In this document: positions 6,282 to 61,089 of the stretch, piece by piece
Position numbering within the stretch: the stretch's first letter is position 1
Layout of the letters: every line of letters starts with the position of its first letter
Source: Aureobasidium sp. EXF-3400
Lineage: Eukaryota; Ascomycota; Dothideomycetes; Dothideales; Saccotheciaceae
Assembly: GCA_024195585.1 (NCBI GenBank)
Contig: SWBL01000275.1
Coordinates: forward strand, 1 to 64,000
Reading direction: 5' to 3'
DNA: 64,000 nt
Made by a program: the position numbers and the translations under genes
Notes under the pieces: model-generated
Database searches by the model: none
What the model was told of the DNA's origin: nothing
What the model saw: the letters and a program-made list of their open reading frames with translations, nothing else

Positions 6282-7465
6282 ATGAGACCTATTCTGCTAT
6301 CCGGTCACGTACGTTTGTCTGCGCGACTTGCTCTTGCGCTCCTCACATACTGACATGCTTCACAGGAGAGAGCTCTGACCCAAGTCAAGTGCGTCTTGCT
6401 GCGAACAAAAAAGAGACGGACAGAAGACAGCCACTAATCCCCAGCGCAGGTTCAGCAAGGAGGGCGACTTAATCTTCTCCGTCTCCAAGGATCACAACGC
6501 ATGCGGCTGGTGGTCACACAACGGTGAGCGCTTCGGTGTCTACAAGGGCCACCAGGGTGCTCTCTGGACAGTCGACGTCGACCCGCGCACCGTCCTGCTC
6601 GCAACTGGCGGCGCCGACAACACCATCAGACTGTGGGAGGTCAAGACTGGAAAGCTGTTGAAGACATGGGAATTCGGAACCGCCATCAAGCGCGTCGAGT
6701 TCAACGAGGACGGCACTCAACTGCTCGGTGTCACCGAGAAGCGTCAAGGCCAGCTCAGCACAATCCTCGTCTACGACATCAACCAGGACCCTGAGGGCGA
6801 GCAGCCCAACGAGCACTCGCTGCGCATTGTCGTCGACGACATTCCCAAGGTCACAGTCGCTGGTTTCTCGGCCTGCACAAGATACATCATCTCTGGCCAC
6901 GAGGACGGTTCCGTTACCCAGTGGGACGCAAAGACCGGAGAGGAGTACGAGCGCGCCTACCCCCATGAGGACGGCATGATGATCACCGACTTGCAATGGT
7001 CTGCCGACCGCACCTACTTCATTACTGCCTCCAAGGACAAGTCCGCAAAGGTATGGCTTCTCATCTCTCTTGTATTGCAATCAACCTGCTAACCCCTTTC
7101 TCTCACAGCTCATGGATGCCAAGACGCTCGAGGTCATGAAGACATACGTTGCCGACACACCCCTCAACTCTGCCGCTATTACACCCGTCAAGGACTACGT
7201 TATCGTCGGAGGTGGTCAAGCCGCCATGGATGTCACCACCACCAGCGCCCGTCAAGGAAAGTTCGAAGCCCGTTTCTACCACAAGATCTTCGAAGAGGAG
7301 ATTGGCCGTGTCAGAGGTCACTTTGGTCCTCTCAACTACGTCGCTGTCTCTCCCCTCGGCACTGTCTACGCTTCCGGTGGTGAGGATGGTTACGTCCGTG
7401 TCCACCACTTCGACCAGCCTTACTTTGACTTCAAGTTCGAGGTTGAGCGCGAGTTGAGGTTGTAA
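6282..7465 (+). CDS. TIF34: Translation initiation factor eIF3 subunit i
   Basis: WD40 beta-propeller subunit of eIF3, which helps load the initiator tRNA complex and mRNA on the 40S ribosome in the cytosol. Four exons (6282-6308, 6366-6388, 6450-7050, 7109-7465) give 335 residues, the usual size for this subunit. The start [19 protein letters not shown] is the conserved N-terminus and is only recovered by splicing two very short exons of 27 and 23 nt. WD-type repeats include [35 protein letters not shown] and the final [17 protein letters not shown]. The protein ends in the usual [14 protein letters not shown] tail. Confidence 0.95.
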
Positions 7466-7831: not shown

Positions 7832-8922
7832 TCAGCGACGCAACTTCTCCACCCTGACAGCAACAGGAATAACACCTCCGGTGGGCAAAGCAAAAGGTCT
7901 ATGCCCCAACGCCCCCAGCACGGCAGCAATCGTTCCCGAATGCGCCGTGATACTCAAAAACACCCTTTTATCTTCGGCGAAAATCTGTTCTAGGCAAATG
8001 TGTTCTCTGAGCACATGCTCAGCAGGTTTCTCGCGATGATCCGGTGTCCATGAGATATCCGTTTCAGGAAGGCCGGGCTCCAAGATGTAAGTTGGGAAAT
8101 CGGTTCTGATGATTGAAGAAGGACCCCTACGGTCACAGGTATGCACGCCATTGGTTTCTCTAAGCAGTTCCTTGACGATGGGGATAAAGGGTTTATCAGC
8201 AGGTAAATCGAGATTGTGGAAAGAGAGCCAAGCGGTTTGGAGACAGCGGTAAAAAGGAGATGTGTAGTAGACTTCTGGGGCAGGCACTTTTGCTGTCGTC
8301 AAAGCAGACTTCCAGAAGGTGTTTACGTCGAGGGCTTGTTGTTCGCCGATGGGGGTCAAGTGGGCGTCGGCCCAGTTGGCGTGTTCGTCGCCTTCTTGTT
8401 TGGCCCAGTAGTCCTGTTTTTTGGATAAATGTCAGAGGACTATTGCGGGAGATGCTGTTTTCGAACCGGAGAACAAGGACATATAAGGAAAGCAAGAGTG
8501 GGAAAAGAAAAAGACGTACATCCCAGAGTTTGGTACCATATCTCGACTCTGCGACATTATGGTATCCTTGGCCATGTCTGCCCAAGTACAAAACCTTGTA
8601 CTCGACACCTTCCTCAGCATTCTTATTCAGCTCTTGAATATGATGCTCGAATCTCTGCCATTGTGTCTTTTCGCTAGCATTTCCAAGGGTGTCATCGGAA
8701 GGGTAAGATTGTTGAATGAGTCCAAAGTTCTCCTTTGCCTGATCATTCGGTTCGTTTAGTACAAGATGTGAATTGGAGAAAGCGGAAGTTCGTTAGACAC
8801 AGATAAGAGCATACATATTCAAAGGTATCAGCATCAGTATCTGGGAGACCTTGCTTGAAAATATTTGGCAATACGCTGAATTGATATTTGGCGTTTGGCG
8901 GAGGAAGAGTGATTGTCGTCAT
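7832..8922 (-). CDS. Histidine phosphatase superfamily (PMU1-like)
   Basis: Three exons (8922-8815, 8738-8520, 8413-7832), 302 residues. The histidine-phosphatase signature LGRHGQGYHNVAES supplies the phosphorylated His; YYTSPFYRCLQT supplies the substrate-binding Arg, and SITAHSGTIAAV near the C-terminus supplies the second His. The spacing matches fungal phosphoglycerate-mutase-like phosphatases related to yeast PMU1; the substrate is unknown. Upstream of the chosen ATG the frame stays open through a hydrophobic stretch (SFLLAVAGILMYLHTF) preceded by a possible acceptor (CTAAC...AAAAG near 8980), so a longer form with a signal anchor is possible. ATG codons occur at 8946 and 8922. Confidence 0.85.
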
Positions 8923-9876
8923 GGTTGTGAATGTGTGCAAGTACATCAAGATGCCCGCGACAGCAAGCAGGAAACTTTTGTAAAGCGGTTAGACTCAAGT
9001 CAGGGATGATGCGAGAAGTCGAGACTGCTTAGAGGCAGATGACCAAGTTGTTGCCGGAGATTGTTGTCGTTACGGAATAATTCGAGCTTGCGGGCAAGCC
9101 ACTTGGTTGGGCATGGTTGTTCCGCTCCGACGACGCCGCCGCAACGTGCATAGATGGGTGGAAGAGAAACACTTACATGAATACAGGATGGAGTCTGAGC
9201 TGGAACTTGGCAATTCTCAAGTTGATGTTGATGTGCGACTTCATACATGAGCTTGGTTGGAGCATAGAATGTGATGTTTGTAGCTGGCGTCGATGGAAAG
9301 AAGGACAGCTTGGAGTGAGGTAGGCTGTAGTCTACACAGAGAATCCCAAATCAACACAACCAATTACCATAACAGCGACAATGGACCTGAGCATGTAAGA
9401 GTTGCACGCATCATGCTGAGAATACACAGGGTCATGGTACGGTCAGGCTCAAGGGCCAAAAGAGTGTCAAGTCCTTATTATATCGCCGTCGTCGCATCGT
9501 GACTTTGTTGCTGCAGAGATGACCTTGTCCGTGACTTTGGCGTTGGCAGCCAAGTGCGGAAGCCCCCCCCACCACCAAGAAATGCGCATCTCCGCTTTCA
9601 ACATGCACGGAAGCAATCAGCATTCTGGAAACAGAGGATACGACAAACGATCCATTGGCGTCAAAGTTAAAAAGATGATATTGTATGGTGATTGTACCCG
9701 TTCTAATAACAGCTATACTAAAGATTTGTTTCTGGTCCATATACAGCAACCAAAAAAAAAAAAAAAAAAAGCCCGGTATCGAAAGAAGGAAAGAAAAAAC
9801 AAAGGAAATAGATAAAAAAAAAAGAAGAATCATCTACAGTTTCTTTCTTCACTGCAATTTGCCCTCACTGCCTTGT
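8923..9876. other. Intergenic region with poly-A tract
   Basis: Nothing gene-like is supported here. It contains an 18-nt poly-A tract near 9751 and a short C-run near 9565. A possible extra 5' exon of the PMU1-like gene could lie in 8980-9250. It also carries the 3' region of the leftward acyltransferase gene. Confidence 0.5.
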
Positions 9877-20016: not shown

Positions 20017-21232
20017 ATGGCTTTGAACTTTCGACACATCACCAGAAGCAGCTTCATGTCTCAACTCAAAAACAGCAGAGGTGTCAGCACGGCACGCGTT
20101 GCCCTTCTCTACCAAGCCATTGAACCGCCAACCATCAATGGCGTTCGCAAGCCCATGAAGCCTGGCGGTAGGTGTGATCGATCATTCACGAACGTACAGG
20201 TATTGATCTTGTTCAGGTTACCAAGACGGATGCGCCGACATCGCCTTCAACCTGAGCGGCCGGTCGGGCATCGAAATCGTCACGCCCATCGATTCACCCG
20301 ACCCTCGAGAGCATGTGGGATGGAGCTTTCCAGACTCAGAAGATGGCATACTTGCAGCTCTGCAGAAGGGAGCCACACACCTGTTCGCCAACACGGTCGT
20401 CTTTGCCAACCATCCACTTCAAACATCCCCAAGAGTAGGAGAACATCAGGACAGAGTCAAGGTCGTTGGCCATCCTCCATGCATGGTTGAACTACACGAC
20501 GATAAGCACTATGTCAATGACATGTTGCGCAAGTCTGGCAAGTTCACTCTGCCTCGTGGTTGGCTGCTCGAGGACGATGGTACAGATCTAGATGCAAAGC
20601 TGCACTCGCTCGATCTTCGCTTCCCTATTGTTGGCAAGCCCGTTCGAGGCCGAGGTAGTCACGGCGTCAAAGTCTGCCAAGATATGGCAGAGCTGCGTAC
20701 TCATGTGCAGTCGCTGTTCAAGGAGTCTCCAGCCATCATCCTTGAAGACTATCTCGCTGGCCAAGAAGCAACTGTCACCGTTCTGCCACCTTCGGATGAA
20801 CATTCTTCCCATCGGGCACTTCCTATTGTCACGCGTTTCAACCATACCAATGGCGTGGTTCCCTACAACGGTATCGTAGCTGTAACCGCTAATTCTCGCG
20901 CCATCACCGCAGAAGAGTATGCAAAAGACCCCACTTATTCGAGCATCGCGACCGAGTGCGAGAATGTCGCCAAGATGATGGGCGTCACTGCTCTCATCCG
21001 AATTGATATTCGTCGTTTTACCGAAGAGCCTGGATCCAAATTCGCTCTGTTCGATGTGAATCCGAAGCCAAACATGACTGGCCCCGGACGTCCTGGAAGA
21101 GAGAATCAGGCTAGTTTAAGTGCTATCGCTGCCGCCGAGATGGGATGGGATTACCCAAGGCTGTTGTTGGAGATGCTGAAAAGTGCTCAACCTCTGCGAC
21201 GTCTTAGAGAGATGCGCCCGGACACTTTGTAG
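20017..21232 (+). CDS. ATP-grasp ligase, D-Ala-D-Ala-ligase-like
   Basis: Two exons (20017-20167, 20217-21232) joined by a 49-nt intron; 388 residues. The C-terminal two thirds have the ATP-grasp order seen in D-alanine--D-alanine-ligase-like proteins: a Lys-containing strand (FPIVGKPVRGRGSHGVKV), the ILEDYLAGQEATV hinge, and the metal-binding FALFDVNPKPNMTGPGRPG near the end with the conserved Asp and Asn. Fungi make no peptidoglycan, and such proteins are common in ascomycetes with no proven substrate. Probably a cytosolic ATP-dependent carboxylate-amine ligase. No obvious partner gene is adjacent. Confidence 0.75.
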
Positions 21233-39903: not shown

Positions 39904-40869
39904 TGCCACCATAAGTTGGACCTTCCTAAGCCTGAGCGGTGACTAAGAAGATCGATGACCGCAAGGTTCCCCGTCACGACTTGACTTTGCGTCTCGAGCT
40001 CGGGAATAATTGCTCGGGTTGGGATGTTCTAAGTCAGTTTGCCTTGGGCAATCAGGACACTTGTAGCTGCAGCTGTAAAGGTCTTCGTCACAGTTTCGAT
40101 GGGAAGTTCTGTGCTGCGGGTGACAGGTCTCTAGAGCTCAGGCGATAGGTGATTTTGCTCTAATATGAGACAGCGACTGAGATGCCTGGTGTCCCTGCAA
40201 CGCGGCAAATGCTTTCTATGACGGGCTCAAGATCTTTCAGGCACTTCTAGAGATCAACCGTGTTTATTGAGGAACAGTCCATGCTGTGTTGAGAAACAGC
40301 AAAGAACAAACATATTCACTTCGGAGAAGTCAGATGTCGAATCAGGAATGAAAGAAGGGACACATAGGTAGATGTAACATTACCTGCACGTACACATCCA
40401 TGGAAGGGTTTTGTTCTTCTCAGACATACAATCATAATCACATGCGTTTATCGCCGACTTGGCCGATGTCGAATTCGGCCGAGTCATCTACCACCACCAT
40501 CTCAAGCACGCTGAGAGAGATAATCCGGCGATCGACCAGATACATCGCTCAGTCCGGTCTCTTTTCTTTTCTTTTTTCTCTTTTTTCTTTGGGATGAGGG
40601 CCTTCCACTCGTGGGCTTACCATACCCTCTGAGGGTCGACACCCAATTGGGCTACCCGCGGACCCTCTTACGACCATCCCGGGTGGCAAGCTTGGTAAGA
40701 TTATCGTCCTCAACTATATTCCTTGATTACCTAGTCTAGCCACTCTAAAGAAAGCCTCAACGCTTTGGATGCGAAATTTCGAGATGATTTCTGCTTGAAT
40801 AGAGTATATCTCATGTGCGGTATATATCAAACAGAAGATGGCAAGCCCTACGTCCTACTATTGGTATCC
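39904..40869. other. Intergenic region with T-rich tract
   Basis: Nearly 1 kb with no supported gene. It includes decayed sequence after the split-barrel remnant, a T/C-rich tract at about 40558-40592, and the boundary between the peroxisomal locus and the RiPP-like locus. Confidence 0.5.
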
Positions 40870-41231
40870 TTAGGAACTCTCTAGCAAGGATCTCTTGGTG
40901 GCATCCTCGACGTTGGGGTTCTTTCCATAGAACCACCCACTGCGCGTTGCATAGTTGTCAACATCGGTTCCTGCCTCAGCTCTACCCAGCAGGGATCTCT
41001 TGGTGGCATCCTCGACGTTGGGGTTCTTTCCATAGAACCACCCACTGCGCGTTGCATAGTTGTCAACATCAGTTCCTGCGTCTCCTCGGTCCTGTCTGCA
41101 ACATCAGTTCAGTACTCTTGAGCTCAGTGATAGACGCAGACCTTGAGAATGATTGCCTCAGGAGCTGAGACCGGAGCTGCTACAGTAAGGAGTGGCAATA
41201 GACCTGCGAGGAGAAGAGTAGAAGCCTTCAT
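40870..41231 (-). CDS. Kex2-processed repeat precursor, candidate dikaritin-type RiPP precursor
   Basis: Predicted two-exon gene: 41231-41142 and 41091-40870, 103 residues. Exon 1 encodes a signal peptide (MKASTLLLAGLLPLLTVAAP). After a 50-nt phase-0 intron (GTCTGC donor, GACAG acceptor) comes a 35-residue unit present twice, each with NYATRSGWFYGKNP and ending in ...DATKRSLL, so each carries a Lys-Arg Kex2-type site; an AEA tripeptide between the copies suits dipeptidyl trimming. This matches UstA-type precursors in outline: signal peptide, repeated Tyr-containing cores, KR sites. Three UstYa-family genes follow within 5 kb. The donor is not the usual consensus, and only this reading frame makes a coherent product, so the splice is the weakest part. 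Confidence 0.7.
40882..41076 (-). repeat. Tandem 105-bp repeat within the precursor gene
   Basis: Two direct copies in the coding frame: 41076-40972 (105 nt) and 40971-40882 (90 nt, truncated at its end). They differ at only about four positions, mostly third-base or in the last codons, implying a recent duplication or homogenisation. Confidence 0.9.
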
Positions 41232-41927
41232 GTTCAGCAACTAGGGACGATTTGAGATTTGGTGTAGACGATTGAGAAGGTGGATGAGGTACAGTCTTGA
41301 CATACTAGTGTTACAGGCCAATATTTATAGTCACGGTGGTTGCGCAAACAAGAAGTGCTGCACACATGTTCAAGGTTCACGTACAACCTTCGCAATCAAT
41401 GCTAGACTCAAGAGAGTTGCGGCATTTTTGCCAGCGAATAGAACTGGAGTCCGATACTCAACTCTTAGGCTTGGGTGCACCTGGTGTGTTGGTGGGGACC
41501 AAAGGGAATGTTGAACGCCACAAAATGTGCAGCTCTCAGATGGAATTCGATAGAGTATCGTATCCAAATCCTTCAGGCCCTCTAAGCGCAACGAGGCCCA
41601 GCCCACGATCGTAAATCAGCCTGACTCTCCTTTCAGAATTGCCGCTCCTTATCTGCAAGGTATGCAACTAGTGCGTAGAGACAGATAAGAAGAATTTGAC
41701 TTCAATAATATTCTGCTTGGACAGTTGCGTCTGATCTATCCGACTTGGACGTTCTTATCTCGCTACATGCTATTGCATTACGAAACAGTTCACGTAAGAG
41801 ACTTCTTTTGATAGGAAACAACGACAAAGATACGGCAAAGAGACTTCGAAAGCACTCAGTGTACATAAGCAGGAACAAGTCTGGCCCAGGATCCACAAAG
41901 TCGTTTTCAGGTTCAAATCAGACCGTC
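41232..41927. promoter_or_regulatory. Divergent promoter of precursor and first UstYa gene
   Basis: About 700 bp between the leftward precursor gene and the rightward UstYa-like gene, a placement that would allow co-regulation. Includes the TATA-like box listed separately. No other feature was recognised. Confidence 0.5.
41322..41329 (-). promoter_or_regulatory. TATA box of the precursor gene
   Basis: TATAAATA on the minus strand, 91 bp before the precursor ATG. Distance and sequence suit a strongly expressed secreted-peptide gene. Confidence 0.45.
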
Positions 41928-42922
41928 ATGAATCTCTCTCATTACAAGCTCCTCAAAACTGGACACCAATTGGCAGACGAACAATTGGTAACCGATTCTT
42001 GTTCTAGCAGTCGATTGATCTCAATCTGGTGCGGTCCCTGGCTGCTGTCTCTCAGTTGGGTCGCCAGTATCATCATCGTTGCTGCCTCGGCATTTGCGTT
42101 AGCATCAGCCAGATGTGCAACATATAACGATATGTGCATTGATAGTGCTTGGGGTGAGTGACTTGATGTCGTGGAATCTGTGAGCATCCTCTAAAAGCAG
42201 TCTAGATCATATGAAAGCCAATGTCGTTTATGAACCTCAAGTATTCAACCCGCATTTCGAGGGCCCCTTATCCAAATATATGGGCGAACCAGGCCCTGCG
42301 CTGGATCATCATTGGTACCAGCTTTCGAAAAGTGAGTCATGATTCGAGCGCACCGCCGTACCACCTGCTGATGTGATAGTGTTCAACTTTGGTGTTGATA
42401 GAAGCTCGCTTCTGAAGATAAACAAGACCGGAGCAGCTGCTGAATTCCCTGGAACCGGAAAATATCAAGCATCGTTGATGGCATTCCATCAACTGCATTG
42501 TCTAGTGCGTTTAGAACAGGGCATCACGACTCTGAGGCGAGAGCTGATAGCATTAGAATTATGTTAGGATGTACTCCAACCAAACTTACTACGAGAAGAT
42601 CGATTTTGACATGCAGGTAGAGAATCCGGACAAAAGAAGAAAGCACAAAGGTGCTCCTCAATCTCTCCACTTTTTGATGTAGGCTAATTCGTCTTCTTCT
42701 ACAGATCATTGTATTGAACAGATCAGGCGAAGTCTGATGTGTACGCCAGATCTGAACATCTACAGCTATCACTGGGTCTCGTATGGGGATCGACCTGAAG
42801 CTGATCTTCACACTGTGCACAAGAGATGCATTAATTGGGATCAGTTCTATCAGTGGTCGGTTGATAATACTTACCACTCAGCGCCACTATTGAAACCGGC
42901 CAAGGAGTCTCTGAGTGTGTGA
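41928..42922 (+). CDS. UstYa family (DUF3328) oxidase-like protein 1
   Basis: Five exons (41928-42153, 42206-42331, 42380-42504, 42557-42650, 42705-42922), 262 residues; every junction keeps frame and rebuilds family motifs. One membrane segment lies near residues 35-60 (LSLSWVASIIIVAASAFAL). The two HxxHC motifs are intact: FHQLHCLNYVRM and HKDHCIEQIRRSLMC, followed by the usual HKRC near the C-terminus. UstYa proteins oxidatively cyclise Tyr-containing RiPP peptides or modify NRPS products in the secretory pathway. It diverges from the repeat-precursor gene. Which step it catalyses is unknown. Confidence 0.88.
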
Positions 42923-43282
42923 TATGGATGTCATAGACCATAGTGGTTCTGCTTGATTCTGGGCCATCGAAGTTGCTCCTGAGATCGTATTCATAGTTAG
43001 TGTTAGCTATCTAACATATGATGAGCCAGAAGTACACGTCCTCATGAGATGTTGTTTGCTTTGTGACTGAAGGAAGAACCCATCTGTCTGGTTGAGATCA
43101 GGACGCATACTATGATACTGCACCGGTCCTGCAGTTCATGTTCATTTTGGATGCGCAAGGAGAAATCCGTTGATTACATTGCGCGGTGCAAGTGACCCAT
43201 ACAGCTACAAAGACAAAACGATAATTTGAACCTGGGCCCTGAGGATTGGTACATACTCTATGGGATTCAGCCTTGGGAGATT
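42923..43282. other. Convergent 3' region between two UstYa genes
   Basis: Space between the stop codons of UstYa-like genes 1 and 2. No gene or repeat seen. Confidence 0.5.
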
Positions 43283-44200
43283 TCAAGAAGACCACGAAGT
43301 AGACTTTGGCTTCATACTCAGGTTGAACGCCATAGCATGATGTTCCAGACCCCATTGACGCACAGCTTCGAAGTCGCGACAAACGTGGAGTACTTTGCCC
43401 ACTTCCTTAATCGACTGAGCTTCTTCGTCCCATATGAAAGGATAGGGTGTGAGGTCGGACGCGCACATGAGACTTTGACGCAGCGAGTCGATGCAGTGAT
43501 CAATATGCTCAATGCCCATAAGCTCATGAGTAGGGTCGGCCCGTTCTGTCGCCCAAATCCTCTTGCGTATCATGTTCTAGAAAGAAGTCAAGGATCAGTT
43601 GCATGATCGGAGTCGAAGGACTTCACAAAACATACCAGACAATGCAGCTGATGGAAGACATCAAGACTCACAGCGAAATAGCCATCGTCTTCGGGTATCT
43701 CGACGGTATCGTTGACCAAGTGCCGTGCATCAGAATATGCAACCCTGCTGACGCCGACTACAGTCTCTGAGTTACGATCCGCTTGGCAAGATGCCACTCC
43801 AACTTACAAGAGTACAGATCCTTCCAGGCTTGATCCTTGACAGGGTCAGGAACGCCCTGGTACTCGCTTAGTTCTGTCTCAAACCCGGTCACGAATAGCT
43901 GGTTCACTTTGCTGTCGGAGAGGGCGTATGCAGGTGCTAGTAATGCATGTCAGGATTCGGTCGTAGCTAGTTGGATACTACCTTAAGCTCACTGTAGACC
44001 TCTACGAGGTTGGATGGAATCTGCGTGGTACTCCAGTGGTGATAACTGAATGAAAGTATGATAGCTCCCTGGATGAACAGCAGAGCGAGAAGACCTTTTT
44101 TGCTGTCAAGCCACCAAGAGCGAGTGCGTCTATCGTAGTTTTCATGCTTGATGAAGGGCTCGGCATCGTCGCCGACGTGATCAAAATTGCAGGAAGGCAT
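43283..44200 (-). CDS. UstYa family (DUF3328) oxidase-like protein 2
   Basis: Four exons (44200-43993, 43936-43808, 43757-43636, 43576-43283), 250 residues. A cytosolic N-terminus of about 35 residues precedes a membrane segment (GLLALLFIQGAIILSFSY). Splicing rebuilds VEVYTPAYA, DLYSFGVSRV, LDVFHQLHCLNMIRK and EHIDHCIDSLRQSLMC, so both HxxHC motifs are present, and the CRDF element follows. It converges with UstYa-like 1. Divergence from its two neighbours is high outside the motifs, so the three are old paralogues rather than recent copies. Confidence 0.88.
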
Positions 44201-44923
44201 AACTCAGCGCGCACTAAAATTGTTGTTGACCAAATCGTAGTGGCATGCTCGATGACTAGTCGGGCATGACAGCTTCTTCAGTCATTGAAGACCTGACATC
44301 GACTCGGTCTCACACTAGCTTGCTTTCGATACTTTCGGTGGACACTCAGAAAGAGCCTTCAATAGTGCCATATAGGGGGCATCGCATCCGAAAGGACTAA
44401 GGATCACCTTCCTCTTGTGTCTTCAATAACCGATCTGGATACGAGCAATGATAGCGAGACGTTGCCTGATAACATTATGTCAGGGCTAGATAGCCGAGTG
44501 AACTCTATCAAGGAGATGCAACAACATCAAGTAGGAAGTCTCATGGTAAAGATCTAGTTGCCGGAAATCGTAACCGCAAATGCGTTGTGCAGCAGGTCTC
44601 AATATCCTGATCCTTATCAAGCTGTCTACGGCCGGATGTATGAGCCTGTGCTATCTCTATTGATGGCACGAGAACAGTTCACTTATGGACACCATGGAAA
44701 TTCCATTATCTAGAGATAGCTCACCGAAACCTAGACCTAGTCGTTTATATTTTGGGATGTGATCGATGGCCCACGCAGTGTAACCATTGATGAACATAAT
44801 TAAGTGCGACATCGGGGATTCAATATCTGATGTTGCAGCTTGATCTCATCGTGAAGCAAAGTATCTTCCTGTTCTGACCCTTCACTCACAGCGTTCCTCA
44901 CTAGCCATGTATATCAGTGAAAC
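44201..44923. other. Intergenic region
   Basis: About 720 bp holding the promoter of UstYa-like 2 and the 3' UTR of UstYa-like 3. No gene supported. Confidence 0.5.
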
Positions 44924-45850
44924 CTAGAAATACCCTTCCTTGCCGTCGAAAATCTTTGAGCCAGCGGGCGCTCGTAACTTGGGCCATTTGGCAGCAAGGT
45001 CTTTGACAGAGACTCCCTCTGCCCAAGCTAATATAGCATCGAAGTTGCGGCATTTCTTGTGTACGCTGAAGTCACCGAGAGGTTCAGTTTCTGGGCGCCC
45101 TAGTTGGTTGATGGTTGAGTAATGAATCCAGTGGTGGGGTATGACTTCCAGATCCGCATGACACATAAGATTTTGGAGCAGAATGTGGACGCAATGTTGC
45201 TTGTGTGCGATGTGGACCGACCAGGGAACTTGTGCGCGATAGTCTTCGTTGTAGTAGTGGTCCGAATACAACTCTTTGCGAAGCTCGTTTAGGCAGTGTA
45301 TTTGGTGGAACACATCAATTTGAACAAGATACGCGTCAGAACCGAGTTGCCAGTCTGCGGGAGCTTTGACACATATAGATGGATCTTTTCCTGTTAGAGA
45401 GAGTGCCTCTGCCGAAGTCCTCGTAATCTCGAATCCTGTTGCCGCCACGCGGTTCCAAGCTTCGTCAACGATTGTGGAAGGAGGTTGCCTGAAGATAGAC
45501 GAGTTGTCGTGGACGGCACCATGGAACGTCACATCGTGAAGGTCTGTATCAAGTTGCTCGAAAAATGGGGCTGAAGGTCAGCTTCACTAGTTTTGATCAA
45601 CAAGATGCTGTAGCTTACAGTATGCAGGTTCATATCGAGCGCAACTCGCCGACCTCAAAGTGGCGGACGTGATGATGTATGTAATTATAGCCGATAAGAC
45701 AATCATAAAAAGACTTAAGAGGCGTGAGAGAGAAAAGAGATCTCTCTTTGAACATGGGTAGTCGATCTCTGGTGGACTGGTCGGCTTCTCGTCATTGGGG
45801 TCGAGGAAACAGTAGGCTTCCTCTGAAATGCCTAGGTTATCTGAATGCAT
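44924..45850 (-). CDS. UstYa family (DUF3328) oxidase-like protein 3
   Basis: Two exons (45850-45619, 45570-44924), 292 residues. The start is the ATG at 45850; a TTG 39 nt upstream is not used. A membrane segment (LSLFMIVLSAIITYIITSA) is followed, across the intron, by the YSPFFEQ and PPSTIVDEAWNRV elements typical of the family. HxxHC motif 1 is VFHQIHCLNELRK; motif 2 is HKQHCVHILLQNLMC. The C-terminal CRNFDAILAWAE element is present. It is divergently transcribed from the phosphotransferase-like gene. Confidence 0.9.
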
Positions 45851-46505
45851 GCTAGAGTGATGAGACTGGTTGCCATAAGGGCTTGACAAGCATTATATTG
45901 CAATACTTGCCCTTTGAACCTTGATTGAATCAAGTCTTATGATTGGCCCTGAGAACCGATTGCCATTCCCACAGGTGGCTTCGGCATAGCGGCCAGCTAG
46001 CGATACAGCCATCGGACAAGTTACAATAGTGCAGAAGCTTTTGAGAGATGTGTTTCAATGGAGCTAGTAAAGGCTTATCAGTAAATCTGCACCTCGCCTG
46101 CTTATCTCGCTACACATAGATAGTTCAATTCTCGCAACTGTTATCTGTCTCGCTACGTGCGTAAAAACTGGTTTGGGTCTGATAGCCGATCATCGCTTGC
46201 TATTCGTTCACACGCCTCTCTAATACGAGCCGTTGGAAGCACGGACTCCGAGCTTCGAACATTGTTGTCTGCATTTATCTATCACGTCTAGCTGTCTCGC
46301 TGTAAACGTCTCGATCAGAAAGGGTCCTTTACAGACTTGCACTTGTGCCTACCGACAACGGAAGAGACATGGAGGCCCCGCTCGAACAATCATGCATAAA
46401 ACAACTGTTGAACGACAGATTCGGATTGACAGTCAGTCTACTCTATCTTGACCAGCGATCAGGTCCGACTGACAAACTTGATTGAAGGTGATTGAAGCAC
46501 ATCAG
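45851..46505. promoter_or_regulatory. Divergent promoter of UstYa-like 3 and phosphotransferase-like gene
   Basis: About 650 bp between divergent genes. A missed 5' exon of the phosphotransferase-like gene may lie near 46380-46460, since a coding-like frame is visible there. No clear motif. Confidence 0.4.
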
Positions 46506-47762
46506 ATGGGCAGGGGCCATTACAATTCGACGTTCAAGATCACAACAACCAATAGAATTGGATACTGTCAGCAGCAAACCCTCCTTCGTCATGGCTGTAC
46601 ACCAATTCCGCCAGAGGCAGAACATTTCATGCTGCATTTCGTGGAGAGACAACATGTAGACGAAGCTATCACTAGCATTGAGAACAAAGTCGCGATGACA
46701 GCCTTATTCGCAGATGCATTCGACAAGTCAGACATAGTGCCTGCCACCTATGGCTGGGGCCAGCTGGATGGTGTTCCATGGATGCTGAGACGATGCATGC
46801 CTGGAACGCCTGCTAGAGATGTCTTTGCCAGATCAAGTTCAGAGCAGCGACAGCATATTCTACAGCAACTCGCATACATTGTTGCCAAGATTAGGGATTT
46901 CAAGATTCCTCAGGAAGTGGCCAAATATGGAGGGGTCAAGTGGGATGATGATGGCCATCTTGTGAGTATCCCTGCGGTTCTGACTCATCAAGGGCCGTTC
47001 CAGACCCTGTACGATGTTGTCGTTGCCAGGTTCATGGGTCAGATACACATCGCAGAAGGGAACCGCATCACACGGGGCTGGCCCGAGCACGGAATCATGT
47101 CCAGGCTCAAGGCGTTCGTGACAAAGAAGCTGTCCACGTATGAAGATCTCCTGGCATCCCAAAGTCTAATGCTTGTTCATGGGAGTATAGGTACGATGAG
47201 AAACTCAGCCCGATTTACCACTACGGATGATCTATTGCTCACTTTAGTGACAGATTTGGACAACATACTCGTAGACGCAGAGACGTACCGTATGACTGGC
47301 CTGACACATTTCGACTTTTCAAGAATCGGCTCTCCACTAGACGAATTTCTTGAGTCTTTCAACAGTGTGTACGGCACATTGCCTGGTGCTTTTGAGGAGG
47401 AAGAAGATCTTCTCCAACTCCGCGACTGCCACTTACACGGCTTTTCCGGATCGCTGTCCGCGAAACGACTTGCGGGTACCCGAACATCGGAACAAAGGCG
47501 GAGATTTGACGAAAGTATGGTTGTGGATTGGGCTCTGGCAGAAATGTGGCATGCTGCATTGAAAACTGCTGATGTTTCAACACCCTCTGACATGCCAGCT
47601 GCACAGGTCATCTCGACATTGCATTGGTTTGCGGAAGATATCTGTCCTTTTTACTTTTGCCAAAAAGGGTGGAACACTACGCAGAGCGCTGAGACGGTGG
47701 AGAAGACTAGGGATGAATGTAAGCGTCGCCTGGAGAAGTATCTTGAACACTTTGTTTGCTAG
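46506..47762 (+). CDS. Aminoglycoside-phosphotransferase-like kinase, altered catalytic loop
   Basis: Two exons (46506-47184, 47248-47762), 397 residues from the ATG at 46506; the N-terminus is uncertain and could be longer through another exon. The fold is APH/choline-kinase-like: GRGHYNSTFKIT as nucleotide loop, and NILVDAETYRMTGLTHFDFSRIGSP with the metal-binding Asp. The catalytic loop, usually HGD-L-x3-N, reads HGMTDLDN after removal of a 63-nt intron, so the catalytic Asp is replaced. The intron has no stop and is a multiple of three; even if retained, or with a donor 6 nt downstream, the Asp is still absent. Probably inactive or altered. It sits at the edge of the RiPP-like locus. Confidence 0.7.
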   Translation: MGRGHYNSTFKITTTNRIGYCQQQTLLRHGCTPIPPEAEHFMLHFVERQHVDEAITSIENKVAMTALFADAFDKSDIVPATYGWGQLDGVPWMLRRCMPGTPARDVFARSSSEQRQHILQQLAYIVAKIRDFKIPQEVAKYGGVKWDDDGHLVSIPAVLTHQGPFQTLYDVVVARFMGQIHIAEGNRITRGWPEHGIMSRLKAFVTKKLSTYEDLLASQSLMLVHGSIGTMRNSARFTTTDDLLLTLVTDLDNILVDAETYRMTGLTHFDFSRIGSPLDEFLESFNSVYGTLPGAFEEEEDLLQLRDCHLHGFSGSLSAKRLAGTRTSEQRRRFDESMVVDWALAEMWHAALKTADVSTPSDMPAAQVISTLHWFAEDICPFYFCQKGWNTTQSAETVEKTRDECKRRLEKYLEHFVC

Positions 47763-48636
47763 ATACCACGATGTATCCAGTATCTTACTTCCTGATCAAA
47801 GGTCACCAAGCCAGAAACTCCTGAGTTTCGATTTGTGTTACCCGTTCAGCATGCAAGTGTCCTTCTGACCTAGATCCAAGCGCTGTAAGAAGAGTGATCA
47901 ATGATTTTGTTTCCAGATCAACATTAGTAATGCTACATTGGTGTCCTCTAGGGAACAATCGATTGACCAGCAAAGAAAAAGCTCCATGCCCGTACCCATA
48001 GGGCTCCGGGATAGTCTGTTTTGGTCACACATTCGTGTTTCGTGCCTGCAGCCACGAAATAGATGGCCTTCAGCCCTAGCGGCTGCCTTGATGATTGTCC
48101 AGAGTCTCCAGACCGAGGCTTCACCAGGTGAGATTCACTTACGCACGCGAGCCCATTATTGCATCTTGGTTTCAAGCAGAGCCCCAGTGTCAAGATCCTG
48201 GCCTGGACGTTCTGATTTGACCTCACTGAAAATTCGCTGCACAACATGCCCGTTGAATTGAGAAGGCGACCGCAAGGTTATGGCCAGCTTCTGGGATCAA
48301 CCTGGTGTTGCCGGTATGCCCCTTGCCGCACGAACAGCGCTCTCGTATGAGTGGTTCTAGACCTGTTTTCCTTACGTCGCTCGTTCTGTCAACCCACGCC
48401 TTTCTTTCTCGCATGAGGCAATCCTAGTTCCTGATATCAGCTATTCCCAATCAAGAATCGACTGCCGCATTGCTGTACACGTTGTAGAGCGAACTATGGT
48501 TATGTGGCAAAGTGCGAGTCGGCTGTTTGGACCGGAGTTTACCCGAAGGCTTGGAGTATGCACCCGGCCGTCATTTTGTCCTTCCGGGCGGACATGCTCA
48601 TCACTGAGTTCGAACATCAGTCATAGCGCGCAGATA
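47763..48636. other. Intergenic region
   Basis: About 870 bp with no supported gene; contains the 3' UTR of the phosphotransferase-like gene and the start of the decayed transcription-factor region. Confidence 0.45.
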
Positions 48637-54814: not shown

Positions 54815-56380
54815 TCAATTCCCCGTGAGTTCGTGTTTATCGATGTAGGAGTCTGACCAGTAGTCATCGGGAAGTACTCTTTCATCTTCCCATGTATCTC
54901 TAGGACTAATACAAATCGTTGTGTCCACCACTAACTTCGAACTGCAGTCATATCGATCAAGTGCTGTGTTCACAGCAACAAGCAGATCAATATTGATCTG
55001 CTCTTGTATGCAAATCATTGCACAAGTTTCTCCCTCTTCGACTTTATGCCACCTGCCACAATTCCTATTTGTCCCCACAGCAAGGTTTGCTTGAGGAGGT
55101 GGAGGATGGGCATCTTCTGTATATCCAATAGCTCGTGAGGGAATTACATTGCCAAGAAGGACCTTAGAGATTCCTGTTGCTTTGCCTCCTTGTGGTGAGA
55201 CGCAAAGAATGCCTCCATCAAAGTTCCTGGAGAAATCGAGATTGGAGCAGTACCAGTCGATCCAAGGATTATAAGTTCGAAGGTTCAATGGCCAGCGGAT
55301 CCCCTGTTCAATCTCGATTGAGAGGCAAATGTCCTCAGGTTGGAGCACGTAGATGTCGCATGTCGGTGGTATGCAAAGCTTGGATCCGGGCGGCATGATA
55401 TCGCATCTGCTGATTCTGTCGCGGTTGCCGTTCAAGAGTGCGTACGAAGCTACACCATAGGTCTTTGAGATTGAAGCACAGGTATCCCCTTCTTGGATCG
55501 TGTGATATATACCTGACAAGCAGAATGGTTCCTCGGGCGCTTTCTGAGGGATAAGTGGTGGTGGTACTCCAGTTGGAATGTGTAGATTGCAGTGTTTGTT
55601 GATGTGTTCGATGCGGTCTGGGTCGTGGATGGCATCATATGCAGAATATTGTGATGCCTGCCTCATTTGGTAAACTTTAGTGTTGCAGTAGGAACATAGC
55701 TCATTCTGTATTCTATCATCAGCAAGAAGCAAAGCTTTTTGTGTGGCTGAGAAAGAACTTACATGAGGCATATCATAGACATCCTCAACTTCGGTAAATC
55801 CATCTATGATTTCTAACTCTCGTGATCAGTGGCCGAATAGCACTTTTGACTCTCGAGGTGATATACCATTGCAATAACGACCACTTTGCGGCTCAATGTA
55901 ACATGTTTCGTTCCATGCTTCCCACATGTATCCTCCATACATTGTCGGCGGCGCACCAGTTATGTTATAACCAGCACATGCTTCGGAGACGTCTTCGAAG
56001 TAAGATCGTAAAGAGTCACCACATGAAGCATCGCAAACTTCGTCATACAGCTCCTTGTCCTCGATTGAGCCTCTCCAAGTAGGCTGATCATATTCCTGAA
56101 CAGTATCCTCGCACAATATTTTTTGTGTGAGTGCGCTCTGGCAATTGTCCGGAAGATTCAACTCATCGAGGTCTGACGGTTTGTAGATGGTAAAGCCTGG
56201 GAATGTCCTTTGGATGGAGAGATCGGTCGCGTTGGGGAACAAGGTGTTGCTGAGAAGAGGTTCATGATGCTTGTGTATCGGAAAGTGGATGGCGAGTTCG
56301 TAGCTTGTTACCACGATCGCAGGGATGACAAGTAGTGGTATCCAACCCCAACGCAGAGCGAGAGTCTTGATTGGCAGCAT
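54815..56380 (-). CDS. LysM-domain protein with signal anchor
   Basis: Three exons (56380-55867, 55812-55763, 55705-54815), 484 residues; exon 2 is only 50 nt. Residues about 10-30 are hydrophobic and serve as signal peptide or anchor. A Cys-rich region (CDASCGDSLRSYF, ETCYIEPQSGRYCN, NELCSYCNTK) is followed by three LysM-like modules: YHTIQEGDTCASISKTYG...GSKLCIP, a weaker one around DIYVLQPEDICLSI, and WHKVEEGETCAMICIQEQ. LysM binds chitin or related glycans outside the cell. It is divergent from a GH18 gene, a pairing often seen in ascomycetes. Confidence 0.88.
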
Positions 56381-57131
56381 GAAGACTTTCGGTGAATGAT
56401 CTTACGGCCTTGGTCTCAATGCTTTCACAAGGACGATCTTACCTTAAGAACAATGGCTGATCCCTGACCTCGGCAGCAATCCCGGCCGATCAGAAGATGG
56501 TACGTGCCTGTCGGGTAGAGAAACCATCATTACTGAGAGCTGGTTTAGGCAGCGCTCGAGCGAATCTATATCGCTAAACATGATTCTGCCCCAGCGATGG
56601 CAAGTCCAATATTGGTTCAAGTTTGTACCAATAGATATCTCGGTGCTGCCAAGATACTTGGCAGATTGCCCAAGAGATTTTCCTTCGCAAGCGCACCTGT
56701 GGCGTCCGAGCTTTGCAACCTCACTTCATGCAACATGCTCCTTTGTGAGCAGTGCCTGGAAAGGTTTGACGGCTTTGCTATGTAGTACAAGGTATCAGGC
56801 ATCGCTGTGACGGACGATACGCATACCACGGCGACAATAAATCACGGATCCAAACCTTTGCCTCAGCATACGGAGGATGATTTATGGGCTCGGCCCGTGT
56901 AGGTTATAGGCAATTTCCACCAGATCTGTCTAGCGTTCTATCACGAGTTGAGCGAGTCGAGTCTGATCCACAGTACTCTTGGCCTACCAGTCTAGCAGAA
57001 GAAGCCGCGGTCACGAGAAGATCTCTTAGGAAGCATGACTTGACTCTTTCTGGATAATTTCTTATTCCGTAGTGTATCTGCCTCACTCGTCCCTACTGTA
57101 CCATTGTTCGCCTTTTCAGACCAGTCAAATC
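56381..57131. promoter_or_regulatory. Divergent promoter of LysM and GH18 genes
   Basis: About 750 bp shared between the two divergent chitin-related genes, suggesting co-expression. No clear TATA box or repeated motif found. Confidence 0.5.
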
Positions 57132-58424
57132 ATGTCACCACGCAGAGAGCCTCTTCCAATACTGCTTCTTTGCACCCTCGTTCTCTCATTCATCGTCACC
57201 GTACAAGCACAACTCAAAAGACCATCATGCGCAAAAACAGGAGGTCTGTCACGAATCGTCGGCTACTACGAGACTTGGAGCTCCTACTCCTGGCAGCGTC
57301 GCTGCAACATGTTTACACCTGAGCAAATACCATTAGGCGTGTACACACATCTCAATGTCGCTTATGCCACAATCGACCCCAACACTTTTGAAGTGTTTCC
57401 TGCGACAAGGGAAGATGTAGGTGTTTATAGACGAGTGGCACAGCTGAAAAAGTTTGATCCTGATTTGGAATTGTTCATTTCTTTGGGTGGGTGGACATTC
57501 AACAGCGAGAAATCTACCGCAACGACTTTGTCGGATCTTGCAGCGGAGGAAGGTAATCAGCAAGTCTTCATCAAGTCTTTGGTCTCGTTCATGTCAACAT
57601 ATGGCTTTGACGGCGTGCATATTGACTGGAGTTATCCAGCCGTCAAAGACCGAGGCGGCAGACCCGAAGATTTCGATAACTTGCCACGGTTTGTGCGCCG
57701 GCTGAAGGAAGCGCTGAGATCTACTGGTGGTCGCGAAGGACTTTCGATTACCCTGCCAGCAAGCCAAAGACATCTGCAGCACTTTGACATCGAGAAATTA
57801 GTCGACTATGTGGACTGGTTCAACGTCAAGACCTATGACCTTCACGGAACCTGGGACAAAGGCGAAAAGTGGATTGAGGCTTCTCTTAATGCACACACCA
57901 ATCTGACAGAAGTACAAAGCACAATGGATCACCTCTGGCGCAACTACATCAGGCCAGATAAGGTGGTCCTCGGCCTGGCATTCTACGGACGTGGTTTCAC
58001 AGCGACAAGCTCTACTTGCATGGAGCCTGGTTGTTCTTTCGAATCCGGTTCGCTCTTCGGAAACTGCAGTGAAGAAATCGGTGTCCTTTACAACTCCGAG
58101 ATTGATGCTTTGCTTGTTGAGAAGAATGTCAAGCCACAACTTTACGAGGATGCGGCAGTCAAGGTGGTCACTTGGGATGATCAGTGGATCGCCTATGATG
58201 ATGTGGACACTTTCAGGATCAAGGTCGACTTTGCCAAGGGGCAATGTATGGGTGGTGTGATGGTATCGGCAGGTATGTACTTGATGGCGTCGTCTGTCCA
58301 ATCTGATTCTGATGTTGTTCTAGTGGATTATGACAATGAAAACGCAACGTACTCAATCGCTCTTGACAAGATTGTTGACAGGAAATTGAAATCATTACAT
58401 AGGGTAGACTCAGAAGAAACATAG
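57132..58424 (+). CDS. GH18 chitinase-like protein lacking the catalytic Glu
   Basis: Single exon, 430 residues, from the ATG at 57132. A signal peptide (to about residue 27) is followed by a GH18 TIM barrel: RIVGYYETWSSY, HLNVAYATID, LFISLGGWTFN, the active-site strand FDGVHIDWSYP, WFNVKTYDLHGTWD, VLGLAFYGRGF and a late WIAYDD. Active enzymes have DGxDxDWEYP; here the catalytic Glu is Ser and the first of the inner Asp residues is His. It therefore probably binds chitin oligomers without cutting them. The rest of the fold is well kept, and the gene is intact, which argues against simple decay. It pairs with the divergent LysM gene. Confidence 0.9.
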   Translation: MSPRREPLPILLLCTLVLSFIVTVQAQLKRPSCAKTGGLSRIVGYYETWSSYSWQRRCNMFTPEQIPLGVYTHLNVAYATIDPNTFEVFPATREDVGVYRRVAQLKKFDPDLELFISLGGWTFNSEKSTATTLSDLAAEEGNQQVFIKSLVSFMSTYGFDGVHIDWSYPAVKDRGGRPEDFDNLPRFVRRLKEALRSTGGREGLSITLPASQRHLQHFDIEKLVDYVDWFNVKTYDLHGTWDKGEKWIEASLNAHTNLTEVQSTMDHLWRNYIRPDKVVLGLAFYGRGFTATSSTCMEPGCSFESGSLFGNCSEEIGVLYNSEIDALLVEKNVKPQLYEDAAVKVVTWDDQWIAYDDVDTFRIKVDFAKGQCMGGVMVSAGMYLMASSVQSDSDVVLVDYDNENATYSIALDKIVDRKLKSLHRVDSEET

Positions 58425-59110: not shown

Positions 59111-59764
59111 TCAGGTTGCGAATGTTTGCGTCTCACTTTCAGAGTCAGATGCCCAACTCAAACTGGAGTCAGACTCATCATCCCCATCCAGAAATGTCTC
59201 TTCCTCGGGTATCGCGCCCTTGTACCAGTCGGTGTGTCGAGATCGCAGTCCCCTCATATCTTGATAGTCCAGCCCTTTGTAGTACGCATCGAATATGGAC
59301 ACCAATGACACCTTCATCCAACCAGGATACTTTTCGCCATCATTCGGGCACTCTTGATCTATAGCTTTGACGTACGGTATCCGCTCCCAGGGCAATAACT
59401 CCAGCTCGGAGCTCAGCGGACGAATCTTGTCGAGAACGTCCTTGTCAACAACCATAAACATATAGCTCTCGGGCCACGCCAGTCGCCCCCCAAGGTTTTG
59501 AGAGGAGGTCCATCCCCGGAAGTGCTGTCGGAGTTGTTCAATAGTGGCACCTTCGAACTGCGCCTTGTCGTTCATCCAGTACGGCAGGTGCCATGACTTG
59601 ATCAGGCGACCATCCTCGAGTCCCTGGCCCGGAAGGCCGTGGAGAGTGTAGATCTCGTACATGGCGAGGAACTTTGTCCAGTCGGCTTCTGAAGAATAAT
59701 CGGTACGATAAATGGCAAACCCCCAGCGCCTTTTGTTCCAGAGCATTGTTGCAAGGCCACCCAT
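59111..59764 (-). CDS. Uncharacterised fungal tandem-family protein A
   Basis: Single exon, 217 residues from the ATG at 59764; the frame stays open upstream to 59971, so the start is uncertain. Motifs shared with its neighbours: RRWGFAIYRTDYSSEADW, FEGATIEQLRQHFRGW, ESYMFMVVDKDVLD, KYPGWMKVSL, and an acidic tail (EEETFLDGDDESDSS). This matches a widespread ascomycete hypothetical family of unknown function. No signal peptide or membrane segment in the core. It is one of four tandem copies here. Confidence 0.7.
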   Translation of the reverse strand: MGGLATMLWNKRRWGFAIYRTDYSSEADWTKFLAMYEIYTLHGLPGQGLEDGRLIKSWHLPYWMNDKAQFEGATIEQLRQHFRGWTSSQNLGGRLAWPESYMFMVVDKDVLDKIRPLSSELELLPWERIPYVKAIDQECPNDGEKYPGWMKVSLVSIFDAYYKGLDYQDMRGLRSRHTDWYKGAIPEEETFLDGDDESDSSLSWASDSESETQTFAT

Positions 59765-60267
59765 GGTGCGTTGGATTTTGAGCACAGAGTGAAAATAGTG
59801 TGAGTAGAACGTCTTGCAGTCTGAATTGCAATCAGAAAGAGGACCGTCGGTAAACGTGATGACAGCTACCAATGAGGGAGAAATTAAAGAAGCGCCTGGC
59901 GCGGCTAGATAGGAAATTGCGGCCAAGATCTGCAAAGATACAATGCTTGGCACACATAGGCCTTGAACCACAGGCCTTATAACACTTAAGGAGGATCAAG
60001 ATGCGCATTTCATACTATCCGAGCCGTTTCGGTGATACATATGAGGCTGATTCTATAGTTCTTTGTTTTGAACTTTGAGTGTAAATGTATCATATATGCG
60101 TCTTGGTAAAGTCGGATTAACTTATCATCTCGCCTAAGCTCATGGCCGGGCTATGGAAACACGTCTGTGAGCGATTGCTAGTGAATGTCATGTTGGAAGA
60201 TGACTTGGAGTCTGGGCATGCTAGCAAGATTGCTGCAAGGACATGCTTCTCTCAATCGAACAATTCT
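59765..60267. other. Spacer between tandem paralogues
   Basis: About 500 bp with no separate gene; includes the open but doubtful upstream part of copy A and the 3' UTR of copy B. Confidence 0.4.
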
Positions 60268-60861
60268 TCAGTCCTCCGCATATGTCTCTTCAAGATCAAT
60301 CTCATCTCTCTCGAACCATTCGCTACTTTTCAAGCAAAGCCCTCGCATGCTGTCCCTCTCAAGACCTTCTTCGTAGAGATACATGAGGTCTTCCAATGGC
60401 ACTTTCATCGCACCCGGATAACCACTGTCTTCGTCCGGACCATCTTTATCGAAAGCCATGAAGTAAGGAACCGGGTCCAACTGACTGTACTTGGGCTCTG
60501 GACTTGTATTGTGGATGATGTCGAGCACATCCTTGTCAACGACTAAGAACATGTAATGTTCCGGCAACGTAACCCTTCGTTCCTTGGTACTCAAAGTAGC
60601 GAGCCAAGAATGGAAATGTTGCCTGAGTTGACTGGGAGTTGCGTTCTCGAATTTGTCTTTGTCGCTCATGTACCAGTTCTGCTTCCACAATTCGATGAGA
60701 GCTGCTTCTTCGGGTCCTTTGTTTTCGATAATAGGTGAACACCACGTCTCGAGCATGTTGATGGATTTGATCCAGTCTTCTTCGGATGAATAGTCCGTAC
60801 GATAGATAACAAACCCCCAGCGTTTGTTCAACCTGACATCTAAGAAGAACAGTGAACTCAT
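60268..60861 (-). CDS. Uncharacterised fungal tandem-family protein B
   Basis: Single exon, 197 residues from the ATG at 60861. Same order of motifs as copy A: KRWGFVIYRTDYSSEEDW, FENATPSQLRQHFHSW, EHYMFLVVDKDVLD, SGYPGAMKVPL, ending in an acidic ERDEIDLEETYAED. The two intact copies are clearly related but differ over much of their length, so the duplication is not recent. Function unknown; probably cytosolic. Confidence 0.75.
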   Translation of the reverse strand: MSSLFFLDVRLNKRWGFVIYRTDYSSEEDWIKSINMLETWCSPIIENKGPEEAALIELWKQNWYMSDKDKFENATPSQLRQHFHSWLATLSTKERRVTLPEHYMFLVVDKDVLDIIHNTSPEPKYSQLDPVPYFMAFDKDGPDEDSGYPGAMKVPLEDLMYLYEEGLERDSMRGLCLKSSEWFERDEIDLEETYAED

Positions 60862-61089
60862 GATGGCGATATGGTCGGTATGTCAAATAGAGGAAAAACT
60901 TAGAGATGAATAGACTCTGCGTAACGTTGTCGTGGTACAGCAGCGGGGTGGTTGATGTGGGAAATTTGCGGGTCTTCGATGGAGTGAAGCACATAAGAAC
61001 GAGCAGGTTGCTCATAAAAGTCGAGTCCACGGAAGCGAGATTGCAGCCAAGACATTGGTTGCCAAGACACTGCCTCAACTTGAGCCTCC

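What the first reader, a model, noticed from the sequence alone, without database searches (positions are those of the whole stretch)
40870..47762. Candidate dikaritin-type RiPP cluster with a new core sequence
A small secreted precursor with two 35-residue repeats, each carrying a Lys-Arg site and a Tyr/Trp/Phe-rich centre (SGWFYGKNPN), sits next to three UstYa/DUF3328 genes with all six HxxHC motifs intact. Known dikaritin precursors (ustiloxin, phomopsin, asperipin types) have this layout: signal peptide, repeated aromatic cores, Kex2 sites, UstYa oxidases alongside. The core here is unlike the short Tyr cores I know (YAIG, YVIPID, FYYTGY), and no tyrosinase or methyltransferase is visible, so the product would be chemically different. 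Sequence shows the genes; the product is inference.
Basis: partly seen in the sequence, partly recalled or inferred. Interest (0 to 1): 0.92.

Follow-up and report, generated by a model that had tools for sequence, protein, structure and literature searches.

The report
Fungal UstYa peptide cluster, conserved core
A genome that likely belongs to the black yeast Aureobasidium carries a five-gene cassette (a short repeat-bearing precursor, three proteins of the UstYa oxidase family and one kinase-family protein) that is predicted to make a cross-linked peptide, and a matching peptide repeat is joined to a relative of the same oxidase in the distant fungus Paramyrothecium, so it is likely a peptide family that earlier repeat-peptide surveys would miss.

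Summary
Three UstYa (PF11807) genes with all six HxxHC motifs stand beside a 103-aa precursor model with two near-identical 35-residue repeats, each with a Lys-Arg site. The fifth gene is APH-family (PF01636). The decisive new evidence: a Paramyrothecium foliicola protein, likely a fused gene model, joins a relative of the precursor's neighbour Y1 to seven repeats V-D-A-A-A-T-R-A-G-W-L-Y; the window reads V-D-N-Y-A-T-R-S-G-W-F-Y. Searching the whole 53.4-Mb genome with those repeats returns one place, the window precursor (weak E, 0.0155, but the only one). So the core is not a one-off, and the Lys-Arg reading frame is supported. Corrections: Lys-Arg is not conserved (2 of 7 repeats in the relative), and two repeats fall below the three-repeat rule of both published surveys. 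Homology with the other parental chromosome stops 4 bases past the precursor's stop codon and resumes beyond the fifth gene, so the five genes are one presence/absence unit, and the repeat array may have been cut there. Best reading: a UstYa-type (dikaritin-like) RiPP cassette with core ATR[SA]GW[FL]Y. Expression, release and cross-linking are untested.

The parts
41142..41231 (-). Precursor exon 1: predicted signal peptide, 30 residues
   Evidence: hydrophobicity only
41092..41141 (-). Predicted precursor intron, 50 nt (GTCTGC...ACAG); weak donor
40870..41091 (-). Precursor exon 2 with two repeats and stop codon
40996..41076 (-). Repeat 1, GTDVDNYATRSGWFYGKNPNVEDATKR
40891..40971 (-). Repeat 2, same 27 residues
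41754..41767 (+). CTTATCTCGCTACA element in the precursor/Y1 divergent promoter
41928..42922 (+). Y1, UstYa/DUF3328 gene, 5 exons, 262 aa; relative fused to the repeats in Paramyrothecium
43283..44200 (-). Y2, UstYa/DUF3328 gene, 4 exons, 250 aa
44924..45850 (-). Y3, UstYa/DUF3328 gene, 2 exons, 292 aa
46101..46114 (+). Second exact copy of CTTATCTCGCTACA, in the Y3/APH divergent promoter
46369..47762 (+). APH-family (PF01636) gene, exons 46369-46431, 46488-47190, 47254-47762, 424 aa; HGS in place of HGD
40866..48229 (.). Stretch without homology to the second haplotype (contig C74) at this site: the cassette and its edges

Best explanation
The segment encodes a two-repeat precursor, three UstYa/DUF3328 proteins with all six HxxHC motifs and one APH-family protein, which together are predicted to make a cross-linked ribosomal peptide from the core A-T-R-S-G-W-F-Y. 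Proposed mechanism: two divergent promoters with a shared sequence element would switch the genes on together (inferred). The spliced precursor would enter the secretory pathway through its predicted signal peptide and be cut after Lys-Arg by a Kex2-type protease, with further trimming by enzymes not in the cassette (inferred). The UstYa proteins, as copper oxidases by homology to CctR, would oxidise and join the Tyr/Trp/Phe side chains (inferred). The APH-family protein may phosphorylate the product or an intermediate, or give self-protection (weakest step, since the usual catalytic Asp reads Ser). Shown here: the genes and motifs, coding-like codon use of the repeat frame, a matching repeat joined to a Y1 relative in a Paramyrothecium foliicola protein, and the boundary of the cassette against the second haplotype.
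For: UstYa domains and six motifs. Precursor frame by codon use. P0080 of P. foliicola: UstYa domain to profile position 190 of 220, then a hydrophobic stretch and seven VDAAATRAGWLY repeats; its UstYa part is 54% identical to Y1 over 56% of Y1. Shuffles: 1 of 20,000 single units and 0 of 5,000 two-copy units reach the observed score. Five of those seven repeats, searched against the whole genome, hit only the window precursor (E 0.0155, 47% identity). Cassette edges against C74 at 40,865 and 48,230. A 14-base element shared by both divergent promoters; its 12-base core occurs 4 times in 53.4 Mb, 2 of them here. UstYa genes sit within the scanned stretch of a classic repeat precursor on 3 of the 10 other contigs listed with UstYa matches. 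DUF3328 as copper enzymes that need HxxHC: PMC12435403 (abstract and passages).
Against: No transcript or metabolite data. Lys-Arg is not conserved (2 of 7 repeats in the relative). The precursor's donor is weak, four splice models fit, and the nearer AG would put the repeats out of frame. Homology with C74 comes to within 4 bases of the precursor's stop codon, so the array may have been cut by a rearrangement. The second haplotype shows only Y3 and the APH-family gene in this assembly. The promoter element was picked after the fact, 3 of 100 shuffles also had two or more matches, and it is not kept in the C665 promoter. The genome-wide hit is weak by E-value. Direct search with the precursor found no relative among 5.8 billion predicted proteins, and only 1 of the 82 proteins returned for Y3 and Y1 carries the motif.
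Confidence: 0.8

Rival explanations
1. The precursor and the UstYa genes do work together, but the oxidases hydroxylate, desaturate or otherwise oxidise the peptide without closing a ring.
For: The family carries out hydroxylation and halogenation as well as macrocyclization (PMC12435403 abstract); no gene here fixes the reaction.
Against: Conserved Trp and Tyr in all 9 repeats of the two species and three oxidases for one short core fit cross-linking better (inference).
Confidence: 0.15
2. A secreted linear repeat peptide (signal or pheromone-like) that merely lies next to UstYa genes.
For: Most repeat precursors in the 2020 survey (78%) had no DUF3328 gene nearby (PMC7329392 section 7).
Against: The matching repeat is joined to a Y1 relative in a fungus of another class, and the cassette is one presence/absence unit.
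Confidence: 0.06
3. The window precursor is a shortened, possibly inactive allele: the rearrangement that placed the cassette here cut a longer repeat array, as the seven repeats of Paramyrothecium suggest.
For: Homology with C74 resumes 4 bases past the stop codon; the second repeat diverges in its last four codons; an exon shared with C74 is cut at the same edge.
Against: Both repeats are intact and end in a proper stop codon; all five reading frames of the cassette are open in the models.
Confidence: 0.25
4. The repeat is not translated in the Lys-Arg frame, so the precursor is an artefact of reading.
For: Weak donor and a nearer AG that breaks the frame.
Against: Codon use; only this frame matches the Paramyrothecium repeats.
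Confidence: 0.03

Closest known systems
Dikaritins (ustiloxins, phomopsins, asperipin-2a)
   Same: Repeat precursor with predicted signal peptide and Lys-Arg sites, Tyr-bearing core, UstYa/DUF3328 genes alongside
   Different: Core with Arg and Trp; 35-residue unit in only two copies; no tyrosinase, methyltransferase or peptidase domain seen among the five cassette genes; an APH-family gene instead. Asperipin-2a too has a single DUF3328 gene and no reported tyrosinase need in the section read
Paramyrothecium foliicola locus behind P0080 and P0006 (not reported as a RiPP cluster in the papers I searched)
   Different: Seven repeats, five of them ending K-E-R or R-E-R; the precursor follows Y1 on the same strand, if the fused model is read rightly, whereas here the two genes are divergent
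Kex2-processed repeat proteins (KEPs; PMC7329392, PMC6339444)
   Same: Predicted signal peptide, repeats, Lys-Arg sites
   Different: Both surveys set a minimum of three repeats; this precursor has two
Victorin and epichloecyclins
   Same: Multi-core, likely Kex2-processed ascomycete precursors with side-chain closure (passages)
   Different: Described cross-links involve other residues; cores not compared here

Membership tests
UstYa-type fungal RiPP cluster (dikaritin-like) | UstYa/DUF3328 genes with HxxHC...HxxHC | tested here: met
   Three genes, six of six motifs
UstYa-type fungal RiPP cluster (dikaritin-like) | Signal-peptide precursor with repeated core next to a UstYa gene | tested here: met
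   signal peptide judged by hydrophobicity only
UstYa-type fungal RiPP cluster (dikaritin-like) | Kex2 sites separating the cores | tested here: inconclusive
   2 of 2 repeats here, 2 of 7 in the relative
UstYa-type fungal RiPP cluster (dikaritin-like) | Tyr in the conserved core | tested here: met
   Trp and Tyr in all 9 repeats of the two species
UstYa-type fungal RiPP cluster (dikaritin-like) | Side-chain cross-linked product | not testable with these tools
   No metabolite data
Ustiloxin/phomopsin subtype | Tyrosinase (and methyltransferase) in the cluster | tested here: not met
   None among the five cassette genes or the flanking ORFs scanned
KEP as defined in PMC7329392 | At least 3 tandem repeats of at least 8 aa between Kex2 sites | tested here: not met
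   Two repeats
APH phosphotransferase family (fifth gene) | PF01636 above its cut-off | tested here: met
   27.4 bits against 23.2 with a spliced model; no match up to E 0.1 for the unspliced ORF
APH phosphotransferase family (fifth gene) | Catalytic Asp of the HGD motif (motif recalled, not from a call) | tested here: not met
   HGS in the window copy and in the C665 copy

The most novel reading that the evidence does not exclude
A founding member of a new fungal RiPP family whose conserved core A-T-R-[SA]-G-W-[FL]-Y is closed through its Trp and Tyr by three dedicated copper oxidases, is released without depending on Kex2 sites, keeps an arginine inside the ring, and has been overlooked because its precursors have too few repeats or Lys-Arg sites, or are fused into neighbouring gene models.
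Probability: 0.35. Interest if true: 0.75.

Novelty: new variant of a known kind. Interest (0 to 1): 0.6.

Why it matters
It turns a single-genome guess into a testable family: the core motif is shared by fungi of two classes (Dothideomycetes, if the host is Aureobasidium; Sordariomycetes), in both cases next to a relative of the same oxidase. It shows a concrete blind spot of precursor mining: three-repeat rules miss such precursors, and gene callers can fuse them into the neighbouring oxidase. The two-haplotype genome also gives a natural comparison of the site with and without the cassette.

Tried and rejected
Direct protein search with the 103-aa precursor: 44 candidates, none at E <= 1; the tool's length limits would have kept the 456-aa P0080 out. 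Scans of the prokaryote and viral contig collections with a Y1 alignment: 68 and 41 pattern stretches, none a relative. A degenerate DNA pattern for T-R-x-G-W-x-Y is uninformative here: 15 matches, backward control 30. Solved structures by sequence: none for Y1 up to E 1, two chance-level hits (E 0.15, 0.16) for Y3. The Y3 exon-2 model (mean pLDDT 82.3, both HxxHC motifs in helices) matched no solved fold at E <= 0.001. The 5.8S search for species identification gave one match below the family cut-off and was not used. The other three repeat precursors of the genome can also be modelled as signal exon, intron, repeats, but with 15, 4 and 12 alternative models, so this is weak support for the window's splice join. 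Considered and rejected: counting the flanking genes (nitronate monooxygenase around 38.5-39.8 kb, Zn2Cys6-like ORF from 48.4 kb) as part of the cassette, because stretches of these flanks align to C74 and the cassette does not.
Full report
What is there. The window lies on contig C275 of a 53.4-Mb, 717-contig genome. The best named match of Y3 is Aureobasidium melanogenum KCU92_g2900 (83% identity; 96% to the part encoded by exon 2), so the host is likely Aureobasidium. A long ORF that reads as C1-tetrahydrofolate synthase (name recalled) is present twice, at 96% protein identity, and pieces of the cassette and its flanks have partners on other contigs at about 68-89% DNA identity. The genome therefore looks diploid or hybrid, as reported for more than half of 49 A. 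melanogenum strains (PMC11905612, passages).

The five genes. The precursor (minus strand) has a 30-residue exon 1 with a hydrophobic stretch, a 50-nt intron, and exon 2 with two repeats. The copies differ by three synonymous changes in 31 codons and then diverge in the last four codons. Y1, Y2 and Y3 score E 7e-40, 2.6e-45 and 5.6e-48 to UstYa PF11807, with two HxxHC motifs each. The fifth gene had no Pfam match as an open frame; after removal of a predicted 63-nt intron it matches APH PF01636 at 27.4 bits, cut-off 23.2. Comparison with its copy on C665 suggests a start at 46369 and a further intron. Both copies read HGS where HGD is usual in the family (recalled), so catalysis is uncertain.

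Is the precursor real? Codon usage: +0.142 per codon in the Lys-Arg frame against 0.135 +/- 0.101 for the true frame of 11 long window ORFs; the other five frames lie between -0.365 and -0.032, and intergenic pieces at -0.236 +/- 0.086. The splice join is the weak spot: donor GTCTGC, four possible models, and a nearer AG that would break the frame. The protein is found once in its genome.

A relative in another class. Searching with Y1 gave 8 proteins. One, P0080 of Paramyrothecium foliicola (Sordariomycetes), is 456 aa long. Its UstYa domain stops at profile position 190 of 220 and is followed by a hydrophobic stretch and seven copies of V-D-A-A-A-T-R-A-G-W-L-Y on a 28-residue period. I read this as an oxidase gene and its neighbouring precursor fused by the gene caller; that is inference. 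The window repeat aligns as V-D-N-Y-A-T-R-S-G-W-F-Y-G-K with score 60; 1 of 20,000 shuffled units reached it, and 0 of 5,000 for the two-copy unit. The Lys-Arg frame scores 92, the other five frames 15-27, and the three other precursors of the genome 22-31. In reverse, five of the seven Paramyrothecium repeats searched against all 53.4 Mb gave one match, the window precursor, at E 0.0155: weak by itself, telling by its place. Aspergillus terreus and Apiospora appear in both the Y1 and the Y3 lists, but the listed contigs or species differ and show no linkage; Wilcoxina appears among named rows only for Y1. Of the 82 proteins returned by these two searches only P0080 holds the motif.

Processing. 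Lys-Arg follows both repeats here, but in Paramyrothecium only 2 of 7; the other five read K-E-R or R-E-R. What is conserved is A-T-R-x-G-W-x-Y-x-[KR]. Kex2 cutting is therefore plausible here and unproven for the family. Both published surveys set a minimum of three repeats (PMC7329392 section 13; PMC6339444 passages), so this precursor would not have been listed.

The unit and its history. Against contig C74 of the second haplotype, homology runs to window 40,865, four bases short of the precursor's stop codon (40,870-40,872), and resumes at 48,230, beyond the APH-family gene. Between these points C74 carries aminotransferase, GST, amino-acid-kinase, HpcH/HpaI aldolase and TauD domains. At the left edge both haplotypes share a stretch reading CG[VI]YQTEDGKPYVL, which continues on C74 and is cut in the window. 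I take it for the start of the C74 aminotransferase gene, which is inference. The cassette thus looks like the derived state, and the repeat array may have been shortened at the junction. The second haplotype holds Y3 and the APH-family gene on C665 (81% DNA identity). That contig ends in about 98 bases that recur at 20 other listed places; 13 of these are at contig ends by their positions, the other 7 were not checked. No second Y1, Y2 or precursor was found.

Regulation. The two divergent promoters share CTTATCTCGCTACA exactly. With up to two mismatches it occurs only at these two places in the window (expected 0.27; 3 of 100 shuffles had two or more). Its 12-base core occurs 4 times in the genome, 2 of them here; the backward control occurs 6 times. 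It was picked after inspecting shared words, and it is not kept in the C665 promoter, where the neighbouring TTATCTGTCTC[GT]CTAC is.

Other UstYa loci. The genome search listed 21 exon-level UstYa matches, a lower bound. Besides C275 they lie on ten contigs; I scanned stretches of up to 10 kb holding each match. Three contigs (C111, C342, C331) carry classic Lys-Arg or Arg-Arg repeat precursors. So the pairing is not rare in this genome, and the window's two 35-residue repeats are the odd case.

Literature. Searches (open-licence PMC papers only) showed no report of this core; the only motif-string hit was an insect barcoding paper (listing). Read: PMC12435403 (abstract, passages; DUF3328 as copper enzymes needing HxxHC), PMC7329392 (outline, sections 6, 7, 13), PMC9233826 (passages; dikaritin processing), PMC12048977 (abstract, section 11; lichen clusters), PMC6339444, PMC8329847 and PMC11905612 (passages), PMC9769878 (abstract). 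PMC11905612 reports two fungal-RiPP-like clusters in one A. pullulans strain; whether either is this one is unknown.

Verdict. A UstYa-type RiPP cassette, a new variant with a core shared across two fungal classes; expression, release, cross-linking and role are untested.

Noticed in passing
L030 (C342) 8649-9341 minus; L027 (C111) 4507-4908 minus; L037 (C331) 6415-6633 plus: Three further repeat precursors on contigs with UstYa genes in the same genome, with repeat units of 14-16, 17 and 12 residues and distinct cores.
   Followed up: partly
L025-L026 (C74 51093-58516): The second haplotype carries aminotransferase, GST, amino-acid-kinase, aldolase and TauD genes where the window has the RiPP cassette; possibly an alternative metabolite cluster.
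   Followed up: partly
L024 2379-2476 (C665 end): About 98 bases, 98-100% identical at 20 other listed places of the genome, at least 13 of them contig ends: a dispersed repeat or an assembly overlap.
   Followed up: no
window 54815-58421: A LysM-domain ORF (54815-55825, minus) lies next to a family-18 glycoside hydrolase (57039-58421, plus), a pairing that recalls killer-toxin-type chitinase loci (recalled, not tested).
   Followed up: no
window 59111-60882: Two neighbouring minus-strand ORFs (293 and 204 aa) share wording (RWGFxIYRTDYSSE) and have no Pfam match: perhaps a small duplicated family.
   Followed up: no
window 20207-21229: An ATP-grasp-like ORF (PF07478, D-Ala-D-Ala ligase C-terminal), 20 kb from the cassette; no link shown.
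   Followed up: no
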